From: an uncultured Candidatus Cenarchaeum sp.
GTDB taxonomy: Archaea > Thermoproteota > Nitrososphaeria > Nitrososphaerales > Nitrosopumilaceae
DNA: 64,000 nucleotides
Assembly (NCBI GenBank): GCA_958295735.1
Contig: OY282369.1
Coordinates: forward strand, 1,162,161 to 1,226,160
Direction: 5' to 3'
A program made the translations under genes and the position numbers. Shown piece by piece: positions 58,738 to 64,000 of the stretch (positions are counted from its first letter, which is position 1; the number at the start of each line of letters is the position of its first letter). The notes under the pieces were generated by a model. That model did not search any database and had not been told where the DNA came from. It saw nothing but the letters and a program-made list of their open reading frames with translations.

Positions 58738-61020
58738 TCATGTACGGATTCGGCACGTCCCGTCCGCGGCGGAGACCAGGCCGTCCGATTCCAGCCCGGC
58801 GACGGCGTCGGCTACGGCCTTGCGGTGATCCGGCAGGCGCCGCCTGGCGTCGGTGTCCGAGACGAACCTGCGCAGGTAGCCGATCAGCATGCCGCGATCC
58901 ATGCCGCGGGGCCTTGCCCTGAGCATGCCCAGCGCTTTCCTCCTGATCCTCGAGTCGTGGTGCGACCGGATCTGCTCTTCCGCATCCCGCGCGCAGGCCC
59001 ATACCCCGTCGGACAGCTCCACGGCGCGCCCGTTCGCCGCCAGATCGTCCAGCCGTTCCGCCAGGACGGCCCTGTCCTTCCCGGCGATCCTGATGCCCGA
59101 CAGGATCTCGTCCGCCGTGAACTCGTCCCGCGCGCGGTCGCGCAAAAAGTCCGCCGCCCGCTCGGCTATGGGGTATTCCCAGCTCTCCCCGGACGGCAGG
59201 AGTTTTTTGGAGCGCGACAGGTGCCGCGCCGCCATGAGCGCGACCAGGTGCGAGATCGGCAGCCCGGCCTTTCGCGCCTCCAGCGCGGCGTACGCGGCGG
59301 TGAACGGGAAGTTGACGGCGCGCACTGCCCCCAGCATGCCGCCGCAGAGTTTCTCGAGCCGCGCCCCCGCCTCCGCGCGCAGCGATTCTGGCGCGCCCTT
59401 CCTCGTCCAGTACAGGCGGCTGCGCCCGCCGCCCGCGCGCAGGGGCTCGAATTCCCCCTCCGGGCGCCCCAGGCGGGCTATCACGGCCGACTGGGGGACG
59501 CCCGCATCTTCGAGATCCGGTATCGATATGATGTCCGATGCCGCCTCGATCTCCCCTATGCTGCCGGAAAGCGCCTCGCCCAGTACGTCGCGCGCGCGCC
59601 CGGCGCTCGAAACGCGCCCGCCCTTTGTCTCTGCCAGCCCCAAGTACCTCAGCCACCTCGCCATGCTTTTCGCCGCGTCGGGGTCCAGCCCCGACGCGGC
59701 GGCCACCTCGCCGTGGGAGGGCGCCTCCCCCGCGAGGTCGATCCGCGCCTGGACGGCCAGGAGCGCGTCCCTCAGAGGGGGGCGGGACGCGAGCAGCCTG
59801 GACAGATCCCACGCCGACGCCTTGCCCTCGTCCAGCACGTCGCCCGGGGCCACCTGCAGGGCCGGACCGGCGCGGAACGGGGCGCGCAGGCGCCGCAGTT
59901 CGGCGGCGGACTTTAGGAACGCGTCGATCACCGGATCCACGGAGGCGCTCTTGTGGACGTACGAGGCCGTACCGCCTTTAACCGAGATTCCGCCCATCCC
60001 GCGCGGATCCACCTTCCCGTAGCGCCCCTCCAGCTCGTCCGTGCGGACGGAGCCCCGCATCCGCACGTGCCCCACCACCTCGTCGGCAAGCGCGTCGCCC
60101 TCGTCCACCCGCTCGATCATGAACACCTCCGGCAGTTTCTCCCCGCGCTCCTCCGCGCGCGCGGCGTGCCACTGCACTGCGAGCACCCTCGCGTGCGTCC
60201 CCTCGCATTTCTCCAGGAACCCCGGATCCACCGACTTGGCGAGGTCCTTCGAGAGCGCCATGGCGACGGTGTCCCTTCCGCGCACGCGCTGCACGCTTAT
60301 GGCGGGCGAGTCGACCATCGTTATCCTGCAGGCCGTCACGAACGCCGCCCCCAGATGCCGCCGCCCGCTCTGGGAGGACTCGATCTCGCAGAAACTCTCC
60401 TCTTCCACGGACGAGCCGAAGCAGGCGTGATCCCCGAACCCCACCTTCAGGAAGTCCCAGCCGGCCATGCCGGGCCGGCCGCCGCCCATCTCGAATTTCG
60501 GGCGCGGCAGGTGCAGGCGGTTGGCCAGCGGGACGGGCTGCGCGTGGCCGAACCTGCACGGCCCAACGGACAGGCCGCCCGAGTCCCCCTTGTCCATCCT
60601 GATGCTCACGGCCGCCTCCAGCTCCGGGACGACCAGGAATGCCGTCGCCATGTCCTTGTCGTAGAACTCGTACCTGTACGCGTCGGAGATCCCGAGGATC
60701 CACCCGTCCACGGCCGCGGTAGTCTTTGGGAGGCTCCTGACGTCGGCCACGCACCGCGCCGCGATCCGGACGGGGGCCAGGATCTGGTCCGCGCGTTTTT
60801 TTCCCGCGCCGAGATCGCGGATCAGGCACAGCCAGTAGCACAGCCGCATCATGGAGTTTTTTGACCACTGCGTGCCCGCGCATTCGTCGGCGCGCACGTC
60901 CGCGGGGTCTGCGGAAAGCAGCTCCGCGTTCCTCGCGGCGACCACGAGCGAGTCGTACAGGCACGTCCGGAACTTCTGCATGGCGGACTCGGCGAAAAGT
61001 CCTGGTCGTCCTGGCGGCAA
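58738..61020 (-). CDS. Unknown 760-aa protein with winged-helix C-terminus, divergent to drmA
   Basis: 760 residues from TTG 61020, chosen because a TATA box lies 27 nt upstream; ATG 60981 is an alternative. The frame is open to 61668 but that overlaps the divergent gene. The first 430 residues (SMMRLCYWLCLIRDLGAGKK; MADSPAISVQ-like MVDSPAISVQRVRGRDTVAM) are not recognised. The C-terminal half has winged-helix-like repeats: SHGEVAAASGLDPDAAKSMA followed by RYLGLAE, an SIPDLEDAGVPQSAVIARLG block, and a final VADAVAGLESDGLVSAADG. No catalytic motif is evident. It may be a sensor, adaptor or regulator tied to the divergent DISARM-like helicase, by context only. Confidence 0.8.
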   Translation of the reverse strand: MPPGRPGLFAESAMQKFRTCLYDSLVVAARNAELLSADPADVRADECAGTQWSKNSMMRLCYWLCLIRDLGAGKKRADQILAPVRIAARCVADVRSLPKTTAAVDGWILGISDAYRYEFYDKDMATAFLVVPELEAAVSIRMDKGDSGGLSVGPCRFGHAQPVPLANRLHLPRPKFEMGGGRPGMAGWDFLKVGFGDHACFGSSVEEESFCEIESSQSGRRHLGAAFVTACRITMVDSPAISVQRVRGRDTVAMALSKDLAKSVDPGFLEKCEGTHARVLAVQWHAARAEERGEKLPEVFMIERVDEGDALADEVVGHVRMRGSVRTDELEGRYGKVDPRGMGGISVKGGTASYVHKSASVDPVIDAFLKSAAELRRLRAPFRAGPALQVAPGDVLDEGKASAWDLSRLLASRPPLRDALLAVQARIDLAGEAPSHGEVAAASGLDPDAAKSMARWLRYLGLAETKGGRVSSAGRARDVLGEALSGSIGEIEAASDIISIPDLEDAGVPQSAVIARLGRPEGEFEPLRAGGGRSRLYWTRKGAPESLRAEAGARLEKLCGGMLGAVRAVNFPFTAAYAALEARKAGLPISHLVALMAARHLSRSKKLLPSGESWEYPIAERAADFLRDRARDEFTADEILSGIRIAGKDRAVLAERLDDLAANGRAVELSDGVWACARDAEEQIRSHHDSRIRRKALGMLRARPRGMDRGMLIGYLRRFVSDTDARRRLPDHRKAVADAVAGLESDGLVSAADGTCRIRT

Positions 61021-61044
61021 GCCGCCGTTGCGGCGCGCTTTGTG

Positions 61045-61057
61045 TATAAAAATATAA
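61045..61057. promoter_or_regulatory. Shared divergent TATA tract
   Basis: TATAAAAATATAA gives a TATA box in each direction: about 27 nt before TTG 61020 on the minus strand and about 29 nt before TTG 61084 on the plus strand. Both genes would be leaderless and their promoters overlap physically. Confidence 0.75.
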
Positions 61058-61083
61058 GGTAGGCAAGACATCGTGCAGCCGCG

Positions 61084-64000
61084 TTGAGGGAGGTCCTGGT
61101 GTGCGATCTGGTCAAGAACATACTCGGGCCGCGGGGCGGGCCCAACGAGAAGATCGCCGGCAAGCCCGTGGTGGAATACATCACGGGAATCCTTTCGCCC
61201 GTCGAGGCGGCGGAGGACGGCCGCGATGCGGGACCCGAACAAGACGCGGAGCTGGCGGGATCGTCCGGCAGCGCCGAGGGCGACGCGGACACGGGGCCGG
61301 CCGTCACGCCTGCATCCTTCCTGTCGCCGGCGCTTGACCCGAAGAAGACGCCATCCTCGATGGGCATGACGTTTTCCGTGGCCGCTGCTGGCGGCTTTGC
61401 GGTCGACGTCTGCGTCACGTGGGCGCGCTATGCCGGCATCGGGAAGGACGTGTGGGAGCGGTCTCCCAGATTCGCCACGTTCCGCATCGACGAGGACACC
61501 GAGACCGTGTGGATCGGCGGGGACGGGGGACGCGTCGGCAGGGGCGACGCGGAGATCTCCCTCAGCGTCCGCTCGGGGGAGCCCAGCGACGGGGTCCGCC
61601 CCGTCAGCGTCTACGTGGTGAACAGGGTAAAAGTGCCCGACGGCCAGACGGCAAAATCCGACCACCACATCTTCCAGCCCCAGATCAGGATAGTCTGCGC
61701 CGAAGGGACGCGGATAGTTCCGGGGCGCGGGACGGGCGCGGCCACCGAAGAGGAGAGGGAGAACGAGGTCGTGTACGGGGGGAAGGAGTCGCTAGCCAAA
61801 GGGCACATGACGTCGGCCGTGTGGAAAGACGTGGATCCCGAGGTGAACCACCCGGACGCGGAGCTGGACTTCCCCGAATGCGCCGCGCAGCCGGGTTTTT
61901 CCTGGGCCGACGGGGAACTTTTGCCCGGCCCGGACCGCGCAAGGTTCTCGTCCTGCGACGCGCGGACGGAGTTCGTGCCGATGCACAACGTCAAGGCGCC
62001 CGACTTCGCGGGGGACGGGTACGACCCCCGCCAACTGGATCCGAGCGCGTATGCCGAGGAGTACGACGGGAAGGAGTTGAGGAAACTCCTGGAGCCGTTC
62101 GCCTTGGGATACGGGCGGTGGGTAGACGAATTGCGCGGCTCCGAGGCAAAGCACGGCGGCGTGAAGGACAGGATCGTCAGGGCCGCCGAAGACACGCGCA
62201 GGAGAATGAAACTCGGCATAGAACTCATATGCGAGGACGACGATGCAAGGCTGGCGTTCTGCTTTGCCAACCGCGCCATGCACGAGCAGGCGAGGTGGGC
62301 AAAGAGGGAAGGGATGCTGTTCAGGCCCTTTCAGCTCGCGTTCATACTCACGGTCGCCGAGTCGGCCCTGAACCCGGAGTCGAAGGATCGCGGCACGTGC
62401 GATCTGCTGTGGGTCCCGACGGGGGGCGGCAAGACCGAGGCGTACCTGTTCCTGGTGTCCCTGATCGCCGCGCACAGGCGGCTGCGGGCCGCCAAGAGCC
62501 GCTTCTCGAGGCGCCCCGGAGAAGGCGTGTCGGTGATCAGCAGGTACACGCTCAGGCTGCTCACGATACAGCAGTTCAGGAGGACCGTCTCGCTGTTCGC
62601 CGCCATGGAATACCTGAGGGTGCACGGCCTGGGCAAGAAGGGCGGCGTGGGATGGAGGCCGCGGGGCCTGCAAGGCGGGGGGGACTTCCTGTGGGGGACG
62701 GCGCCGTTCTCCGTGGGGCTCTGGGTGGGCAACGCGGTGACCCCCAACAAGATGGAAAGGACTGGGCTTGGCGGAAGCGTGCCCGGCGCCCTGGACATCT
62801 TGGGCCTCCCTGACGGACGCGAGCGCGGGGATCACGGCGAGCCGGCGCAGATGCTTGAATGCCCCGCGTGCGGATCCGTGCTGGCCACCCCCAAGATGGG
62901 GCTGAAGAGAGAGGCGGAGATCCACTACGTGATCCTCGGCGGTGCCGGCAAATTGGAGGCAGTCGGCGAGTCCCTGAAAGGGGCCAAGATCCCGCACGTC
63001 AAGATCGTGGACTCGGCCGTTACGAAAAACCGCGCCGAGGACGCTCGCACGCTGTCGCTCAAGCTGCGCTCCGATTCGCACATCAGGGCGGACGACCTGG
63101 CCAGGCTTTGGTCCGAAATAAGCCGGAGGCTGGAGGACGCCGGGGCGGGGGCGAGGCTGGCTCCGGCGAGCGCGTCCCGTCCGGGGTACTTTGTCAGGAA
63201 TTACGCGAGCGGCGGGAAGTTGATGGAATACGACTTTGACGTGTTCTGCCCCAACCCGGGATGCCAGCTCGTGACTGCCTGGGCGGGCGGGGCCCCGCTG
63301 GGAAGGATCCACGGCAGGGCTCCCGGCAGCCTGGATCTCGACGATTCCGCGTGCGGCGTCAAGAGCCCCGACGGCAACTACATGACCGACGTCGTCGACG
63401 CGTTCGCGGTGGAACGGAGCCTCTCCGACCGCATACCGATCCCGGCGCTCACCGTTGACGAGCAGCTGTACGGGACTCTCCCCACCATGATCGTCTCGAC
63501 CGTGGACAAGTTCGCCAGGATCCCGTTCGAGCCCAGATCCGGGGCCCTGTTCGGCAACGCCGATCACTACAACTGCGTCAGGGGATACTACAGGGAGCAC
63601 GTGGGGCATCCCAGCCCCTCGGGGAGGGGGGACAACAACTACGTCAGACTGCCGTACGGGATACGGCGGCCCGATCTCATAATACAGGACGAGCTCCACC
63701 TCATAGACGGCCCGCTGGGAAGCATGGTGGGCGCGTACGAATCCGCGGTAGAGCGCTTGTGCGCGGCCAAGGGCACGCGGGTAAAATACATCGCATCCAC
63801 GGCCACCTCCAAGCGCTCTGGCGATCACGTGAAATCCCTGTTTGCGAGGGAGTTCGCCGTGTTCCCCCCCAAGGGACTCGATGCGGACGACCGCTTCTTC
63901 GTCAGGGGAGGCCCGGCCCACCCGTTGCTGGACAGGGGCGCGGGGCAGCTCTACTTGGGGGTTTGCGCCCCGGGCCGCAGCGCCATAGTCCCGATCATCA
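61084..64000 (+). CDS. drmA: DISARM DrmA-like helicase, C-terminus beyond window
   Basis: At least 972 residues from TTG 61084, open to the right edge. Helicase motif I is in CDLLWVPTGGGKTEAYLFLV near residue 440, preceded by MLFRPFQLAFILTVAESAL. The DEAH-like box is DLIIQDELHLIDGPLGSMVG near residue 865 and is followed by KYIASTATSKR. Two cysteine pairs (LECPACGSVLATPK; VFCPNPGCQLV) suggest a zinc-binding insert, and TMIVSTVDKFARIPFEPRSG fits DrmA from memory. By family knowledge DrmA is the SF2 helicase core of the DISARM anti-phage system and works with DrmB (DUF1998); DrmB and a methyltransferase would be expected just to the right. Confidence 0.82.
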   Translation, partial: MREVLVCDLVKNILGPRGGPNEKIAGKPVVEYITGILSPVEAAEDGRDAGPEQDAELAGSSGSAEGDADTGPAVTPASFLSPALDPKKTPSSMGMTFSVAAAGGFAVDVCVTWARYAGIGKDVWERSPRFATFRIDEDTETVWIGGDGGRVGRGDAEISLSVRSGEPSDGVRPVSVYVVNRVKVPDGQTAKSDHHIFQPQIRIVCAEGTRIVPGRGTGAATEEERENEVVYGGKESLAKGHMTSAVWKDVDPEVNHPDAELDFPECAAQPGFSWADGELLPGPDRARFSSCDARTEFVPMHNVKAPDFAGDGYDPRQLDPSAYAEEYDGKELRKLLEPFALGYGRWVDELRGSEAKHGGVKDRIVRAAEDTRRRMKLGIELICEDDDARLAFCFANRAMHEQARWAKREGMLFRPFQLAFILTVAESALNPESKDRGTCDLLWVPTGGGKTEAYLFLVSLIAAHRRLRAAKSRFSRRPGEGVSVISRYTLRLLTIQQFRRTVSLFAAMEYLRVHGLGKKGGVGWRPRGLQGGGDFLWGTAPFSVGLWVGNAVTPNKMERTGLGGSVPGALDILGLPDGRERGDHGEPAQMLECPACGSVLATPKMGLKREAEIHYVILGGAGKLEAVGESLKGAKIPHVKIVDSAVTKNRAEDARTLSLKLRSDSHIRADDLARLWSEISRRLEDAGAGARLAPASASRPGYFVRNYASGGKLMEYDFDVFCPNPGCQLVTAWAGGAPLGRIHGRAPGSLDLDDSACGVKSPDGNYMTDVVDAFAVERSLSDRIPIPALTVDEQLYGTLPTMIVSTVDKFARIPFEPRSGALFGNADHYNCVRGYYREHVGHPSPSGRGDNNYVRLPYGIRRPDLIIQDELHLIDGPLGSMVGAYESAVERLCAAKGTRVKYIASTATSKRSGDHVKSLFAREFAVFPPKGLDADDRFFVRGGPAHPLLDRGAGQLYLGVCAPGRSAIVPII

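What the first reader, a model, noticed from the sequence alone, without database searches (positions are those of the whole stretch)
58738..64000. Unknown 760-aa winged-helix protein paired divergently with a DISARM-type helicase
The sequence shows a DrmA-like helicase and an unrecognised large protein whose TATA boxes overlap in one 13-bp tract. Known DISARM loci (drmA, drmB, drmC plus class-specific genes) do not, to my knowledge, include a protein like this. It has an unfamiliar N-terminal half and several winged-helix-like segments. Shared promoter control suggests a regulator or sensor for a variant DISARM in archaea. This is the best candidate for an undescribed system in the window.
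Basis: partly seen in the sequence, partly recalled or inferred. Interest (0 to 1): 0.75.

Follow-up and report, generated by a model that had tools for sequence, protein, structure and literature searches.

The report
New accessory protein in archaeal DISARM
An ammonia-oxidising-type archaeon carries a DISARM-type anti-virus gene pair (drmA-drmB) beside an unrecognised 760-residue protein with DNA-binding-type domains; the few relatives that could be found of this protein all occur in genomes with the same branch of DISARM helicase, so it looks like a previously unnamed accessory part of an archaeal DISARM variant.

Summary
A 760-aa ORF (X, 58738-61020, minus) lies head-to-head with a full drmA (DrmA model E=3e-279); a 13-bp AT-only tract (61045-61057) lies between them. 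drmB follows drmA just outside the window with an ATGA overlap (DrmB E=1e-171).

X matches no curated family in Pfam, NCBIfam, PADLOC, PHROGs or PDB sequences. It is not detectably DrmE: no DrmE_fam hit, no hhalign match to an archaeal DrmE. Its C-terminal half holds winged-helix repeats; its N-terminal half is unrecognised.

Full-length homologues (25-29% identity) were found in only two other archaea: one is Vsr/cytosine MTase/X divergent to drmA; the other has X beside a cytosine MTase and a mismatch glycosylase, with drmA-drmB-drmC on another contig. These three DrmA fall in one clade of four (100/99); the fourth's contig ends where X would be. Related archaeal loci carry a different, unrelated ~470-aa accessory (Y).

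Best reading: X is a lineage-specific DNA-binding accessory subunit of an archaeal class-2-like DISARM, in the slot DrmE occupies elsewhere. The window copy lacks MTase and drmC in cis. Function is inferred, not shown.

The parts
58738..61020 (-). Gene X, 760-aa protein of an unnamed family (TTG start; alternative ATG at 60981)
   Evidence: no hit in Pfam, NCBIfam (except LexA at E 0.09), PADLOC, PDB, only a 0.03 regulator hit in PHROGs
59836..61020 (-). X N-terminal half (residues 1-395): predicted helical then beta-rich, fold unknown; holds the best conserved motif QPxPxxNRLH (residues 161-170)
   Evidence: alignments; models too weak to read a fold (pLDDT 44 and 33)
59596..59823 (-). X residues 400-475: first winged-helix-like segment
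   Evidence: weak Pfam/NCBIfam/PADLOC winged-helix hits on the G109 homologue at 431-498; PDB Lrp-type regulator at E 0.4
58747..59388 (-). X residues 545-758: winged-helix repeats, pLDDT about 75-85 over most of the last 140 residues
   Evidence: Foldseek best match SelB C-terminal WH repeats 1lva E 1.6e-4; similar segment in helicases of G446 and G271
61021..61083 (.). 63-bp divergent intergenic region between X and drmA
61045..61057 (.). 13-bp AT-only tract TATAAAAATATAA, candidate overlapping TATA boxes for both genes
   Evidence: promoter role inferred
61084..64000 (+). drmA (first 972 of 1290 aa; continues to genome position 1227116); Walker A TGGGKT and DExH-type motif QDELH present
   Evidence: drmB follows at genome 1227113-1228930 (L009:9114-10931), outside the window

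Best explanation
X is a lineage-specific accessory subunit of an archaeal DISARM variant, occupying the place that DrmE has in class 2 DISARM. Shown: X co-occurs with one branch of DrmA and, in its two relatives, sits in an operon with a C5-cytosine methyltransferase and beside a repair gene for deaminated 5-methylcytosine (Vsr or a mismatch glycosylase). Inferred: DrmA-DrmB is the translocating core that loads on incoming DNA, as shown for the Serratia complex; X binds DNA through its winged helices and helps to recognise or hold the target, or brings in an effector through its N-terminal half; methylated self DNA is spared. In the window genome the methyltransferase and drmC are missing in cis, so that copy is either reduced, or relies on an unlinked methyltransferase or on the DNA-structure-based self/non-self choice of DrmAB.
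For: X homologues in G109 (E 6e-94) and G407 (6e-79) only. Gene orders: G109 Vsr-MTase-X divergent to drmA; G407 X-MTase plus divergent HhH-GPD, and drmA-drmB-drmC on contig C5 with DrmA 49% identical. DrmA tree: window, G109, G407, G456 form a clade 100/99; the G456 contig ends just upstream of its MTase, where X would lie. In the 398-genome phylum sample X occurs in 2 genomes and the close DrmA (over 800 bits) in 3, both X genomes included (by hand, chance about 4e-5, ignoring kinship). DrmA motifs intact; DrmB coupled by an ATGA overlap. DrmAB as core and DrmE as a less conserved component: PMC9142583.
Against: Only three homologues, 25-29% identical, so the family is thin. In G407 X and drmA lie on different small contigs. 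G236 has a related DrmA (39%) and no X. The window locus lacks MTase, drmC, Vsr and glycosylase. No catalytic motif was recognised in X, and nothing shows that X contacts DrmAB or DNA.
Confidence: 0.55

Rival explanations
1. X is a transcription regulator of the DISARM locus: its winged helices bind the shared divergent promoter and control drmAB and itself.
For: Head-to-head arrangement with an unusual 13-bp AT tract; winged-helix segments resemble transcription regulators; in both relatives X precedes the MTase, as control proteins of restriction-modification systems may.
Against: 760 aa with a conserved 395-aa N-terminal half is large for a regulator; the divergent partner is not conserved (glycosylase gene in G407) and the AT tract is not conserved in G109; the best conserved stretch (QPxPxxNRLH) is in the N-terminal half, not in the winged helices.
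Confidence: 0.2
2. X is the DNA-cleaving or effector subunit: the unrecognised N-terminal half is a divergent nuclease, which would explain why drmC can be absent at the window locus.
For: The window locus has X, drmA and drmB but no drmC; X lies next to a cytosine MTase in G109 and G407, a common place for a restriction enzyme.
Against: No nuclease family hit at E up to 1 in Pfam or PADLOC; G407 has both X and drmC; no PD-(D/E)xK, HNH or PLD signature was evident by eye; no usable fold for this half.
Confidence: 0.17
3. X is a neighbour that is inherited with drmA in mobile defence islands but has no role in DISARM.
For: Few homologues; in G407 the genes are on separate contigs that both hold integrase-like genes.
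Against: Retention with the same DrmA branch in three genomes of low similarity (DrmA 45-49%, X 25-29%), with the same divergent adjacency in two; X frame intact in all three.
Confidence: 0.08

Closest known systems
DISARM class 2 (drmA, drmB, drmC, drmMII, drmE)
   Same: DrmA and DrmB by profile; in the relatives a C5-cytosine MTase (DrmMII model E 6.5e-117 in G109) and a PLD DrmC; a roughly 800-aa extra protein in the same neighbourhood slot
   Different: X has no detectable similarity to DrmE_fam (NF038316) or to a real archaeal DrmE (L055:13191-15698); MTase and drmC are absent at the window locus; Vsr or glycosylase genes accompany the relatives
Serratia DrmAB core complex (PMC9142583)
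   Same: Helicase plus DUF1998/MZB protein as separate, adjacent genes
   Different: No X is described there; the role of X is untested
Archaeal DISARM loci of G150, G236 and G137 (this work)
   Same: Nearest other DrmA branch, DrmB, PLD, cytosine MTase; glycosylase in G236
   Different: They carry a 468-496-aa protein Y that is not detectably related to X
SelB C-terminal winged-helix array
   Same: Fold match to tandem winged helices (E 1.6e-4)
   Different: Local resemblance only; X lacks the GTPase part, and the model is low confidence outside this region

Membership tests
DISARM | DrmA helicase | tested here: met
   PADLOC 3.2e-279, NCBIfam DISARM_DrmAL 8e-270 on the first 972 aa (898 bits; the curated cut-off of 999 is for the full protein)
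DISARM | DrmB (DUF1998/MZB) encoded by a separate adjacent gene | tested here: met
   PADLOC DrmB 1e-171; NCBIfam DrmB_fam 402 bits over cut-off 240; ATGA overlap
DISARM | DNA methyltransferase in the locus | tested here: not met
   Nearest C5-MTase is about 150 kb away; the right-flank ORFs read showed no methyltransferase. Present in G109, G407, G456
DISARM | DrmC PLD protein (often absent, reported dispensable) | tested here: not met
   No DrmC homologue in window or 24 kb right; present in G407 and G456
DISARM class 2 | DrmE | tested here: not met
   X: no DrmE_fam hit at E up to 1, none in the genome, hhalign to an archaeal DrmE probability 0.1% (thin profile)
DISARM class 1 | DrmD SNF2 helicase and DrmMI adenine MTase | tested here: inconclusive
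   None seen among the ORFs read to 24 kb right; no dedicated profile search of the flanks was made
DISARM | Restricts phage or plasmid DNA | not testable with these tools
   needs experiment

The most novel reading that the evidence does not exclude
X founds a new protein family that defines an archaeal class of DISARM: a DNA-binding recognition subunit in place of DrmE, working with DrmAB and a 5mC methyltransferase, with a matching repair gene guarding the host against 5mC deamination. Sister archaeal systems use an unrelated protein Y in the same role.
Probability: 0.45. Interest if true: 0.65.

Novelty: new variant of a known kind. Interest (0 to 1): 0.5.

Why it matters
DISARM has been studied experimentally in bacteria, and its accessory proteins (DrmD, DrmE) are the unexplained part of its mechanism. 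An archaeal branch that keeps DrmAB but has another accessory protein (X or Y in place of DrmE) shows which parts are the core and which are exchangeable, and gives defined candidates for testing what the accessory protein adds.

Tried and rejected
X as DrmE: no profile hit and no hhalign match. X related to the L. plantarum 801-aa protein in the same slot: no. X related to Y: no. X on plasmids, phages or viral contigs: none. The genome-contig scan found only the G109 contig, L031. Two AlphaFold jobs gave no usable N-terminal fold. Weak hits in G446 and G271 proved to be winged helices of helicases, not X. A 99-aa truncated frame at the end of the G456 contig, next to its MTase, has winged-helix-like sequence but matches X only at E 0.002 in a three-sequence database, so it was not counted. 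Ofir et al. 2018 was not held.

Full report
1. Observation. The window is bases 1162161-1226160 of a single-contig 3.17-Mb archaeal genome. One X homologue lies in a genome of the same family whose contig equals a Nitrosopumilus MAG record, so the host is very probably a marine ammonia-oxidising-type archaeon (inference). X is an intact 760-aa ORF at 58738-61020 on the minus strand, with coding-like codon-position GC. drmA starts at 61084 on the plus strand and is 1290 aa. The 63-bp gap holds a 13-bp AT-only tract. In a 65% GC window such a run is unexpected (about 0.05 expected from composition). It suits two divergent TATA boxes, but this is inference.

2. Outside the window. drmB follows drmA with an ATGA overlap (genome 1227113-1228930) and is a clear DrmB. 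No drmC, Vsr, mismatch glycosylase or Y homologue was found in the window or the next 24 kb, and the nearest C5-MTase is about 150 kb away. Further right lies what looks like a defence island: a GHKL-type ATPase, PDC-S46 AAA-type proteins and more ATPases. To the left of X are sugar-nucleotide (surface glycan) genes (by reading).

3. What X is. No curated family matches it in Pfam, PADLOC, NCBIfam, PDB sequences or PHROGs, beyond sub-threshold HTH-type hits. The G109 homologue gives weak winged-helix hits at 431-498. The AlphaFold model is poor overall (pLDDT 44), but most of the C-terminal 140 residues reach about 75-85 and form winged-helix repeats. Foldseek finds SelB's winged-helix array (E 1.6e-4). 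The N-terminal half stays unknown (pLDDT 33). Its strongest motif is QPxPxxNRLH, kept in all three homologues.

4. Where X occurs. The family (250 genomes), a phylum sample (398), the class of G407 (229), the class of G456 (44) and one further family (70) were searched; the sets overlap. Full-length X was found only in the window genome, G109 and G407. Plasmid, phage and viral collections gave nothing. The window DrmA is 45-49% identical to those of G109, G407 and G456, while the other two DrmA of the window genome give only partial matches, at most 45%. In the DrmA tree the three X genomes plus G456 form a 100/99 clade. G456 carries MTase-glycosylase-drmA-drmB-drmC, and its contig ends 0.6 kb upstream of the MTase, so absence of X there cannot be judged.

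5. Gene neighbourhoods. G109: Vsr, C5-MTase (DrmMII 6.5e-117), X, divergent drmA. G407: X and the start of a C5-MTase on contig C6, with a divergent HhH-GPD glycosylase, and drmA-drmB-drmC on contig C5. Vsr and such glycosylases both fit repair of T:G mismatches from deaminated 5-methylcytosine (established knowledge of these families, from memory). Related archaeal loci G150 and G236 (DrmA 35-37%) have drmA-drmB-drmC, a C5-MTase and a different accessory protein Y of 468-486 aa; G137 has a drmA-drmB fusion and a Y-like 496-aa protein. G406 has a real DrmE (DrmE_fam 7e-157) near its MTase and drmA. X, Y and DrmE are not detectably related to one another, though the profiles are thin.

6. Mechanism. 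DrmAB is known as an ATP-driven complex, autoinhibited until it loads on 5'-overhang DNA, with ATPase activity lowered by 5mC (PMC9142583). The simplest reading is that X adds DNA contact or recognition in the DrmE slot. The regulator reading rests on the divergent promoter, which is not conserved in G407 (X is divergent to the glycosylase) or clearly in G109. The nuclease reading has no motif support. All steps for X beyond its genomic association are inference.

7. Novelty. A 2025 survey of YprA/DrmA-family helicases notes many uncharacterised DISARM-like classes and does not name DrmE in its main text (PMC12458937). I found no description of X, but supplementary tables were not readable here, so an earlier listing cannot be excluded. 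I rate it a new variant of a known kind.

Noticed in passing
L051:6584-8044; L075:1703-3109; L052:16337-17827: A second unnamed accessory protein (Y, 468-496 aa, 30% identity between the first two) follows drmC in archaeal DISARM loci of G150, G236 and probably G137.
   Followed up: partly
L052:9218-15802: drmA and drmB appear fused in one 2194-aa ORF in G137, although DISARM is noted for keeping them separate.
   Followed up: no
L035:8823-11228: L. plantarum plasmid pMK02: an 801-aa protein between DrmMII and drmA matches no DrmE model and no PADLOC family.
   Followed up: partly
G000 2604-2638 kb (L011-L013): Two further drmAB loci in the window genome, with other partners (GHKL-type ATPases, a DNA methylase-like gene, a Vsr homologue near 2608 kb).
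   Followed up: partly
L027:5203-7467; L028:8112-10505: SF2-type helicases whose C-terminal winged-helix segment resembles that of X; the L027 one sits beside a 760-aa methyltransferase-like protein.
   Followed up: partly
L009:11784-20000 and L010: Possible defence island to the right: GHKL-type ATPase (778 aa), a PDC-S46 protein and a similar AAA protein, further Hsp90-like ATPases.
   Followed up: no
L074:792-3356: Long tandem-repeat ORF (MRRRRSAGPERRTPRPR repeated) at genome about 580.8-583.4 kb, probably a non-coding tandem repeat.
   Followed up: no
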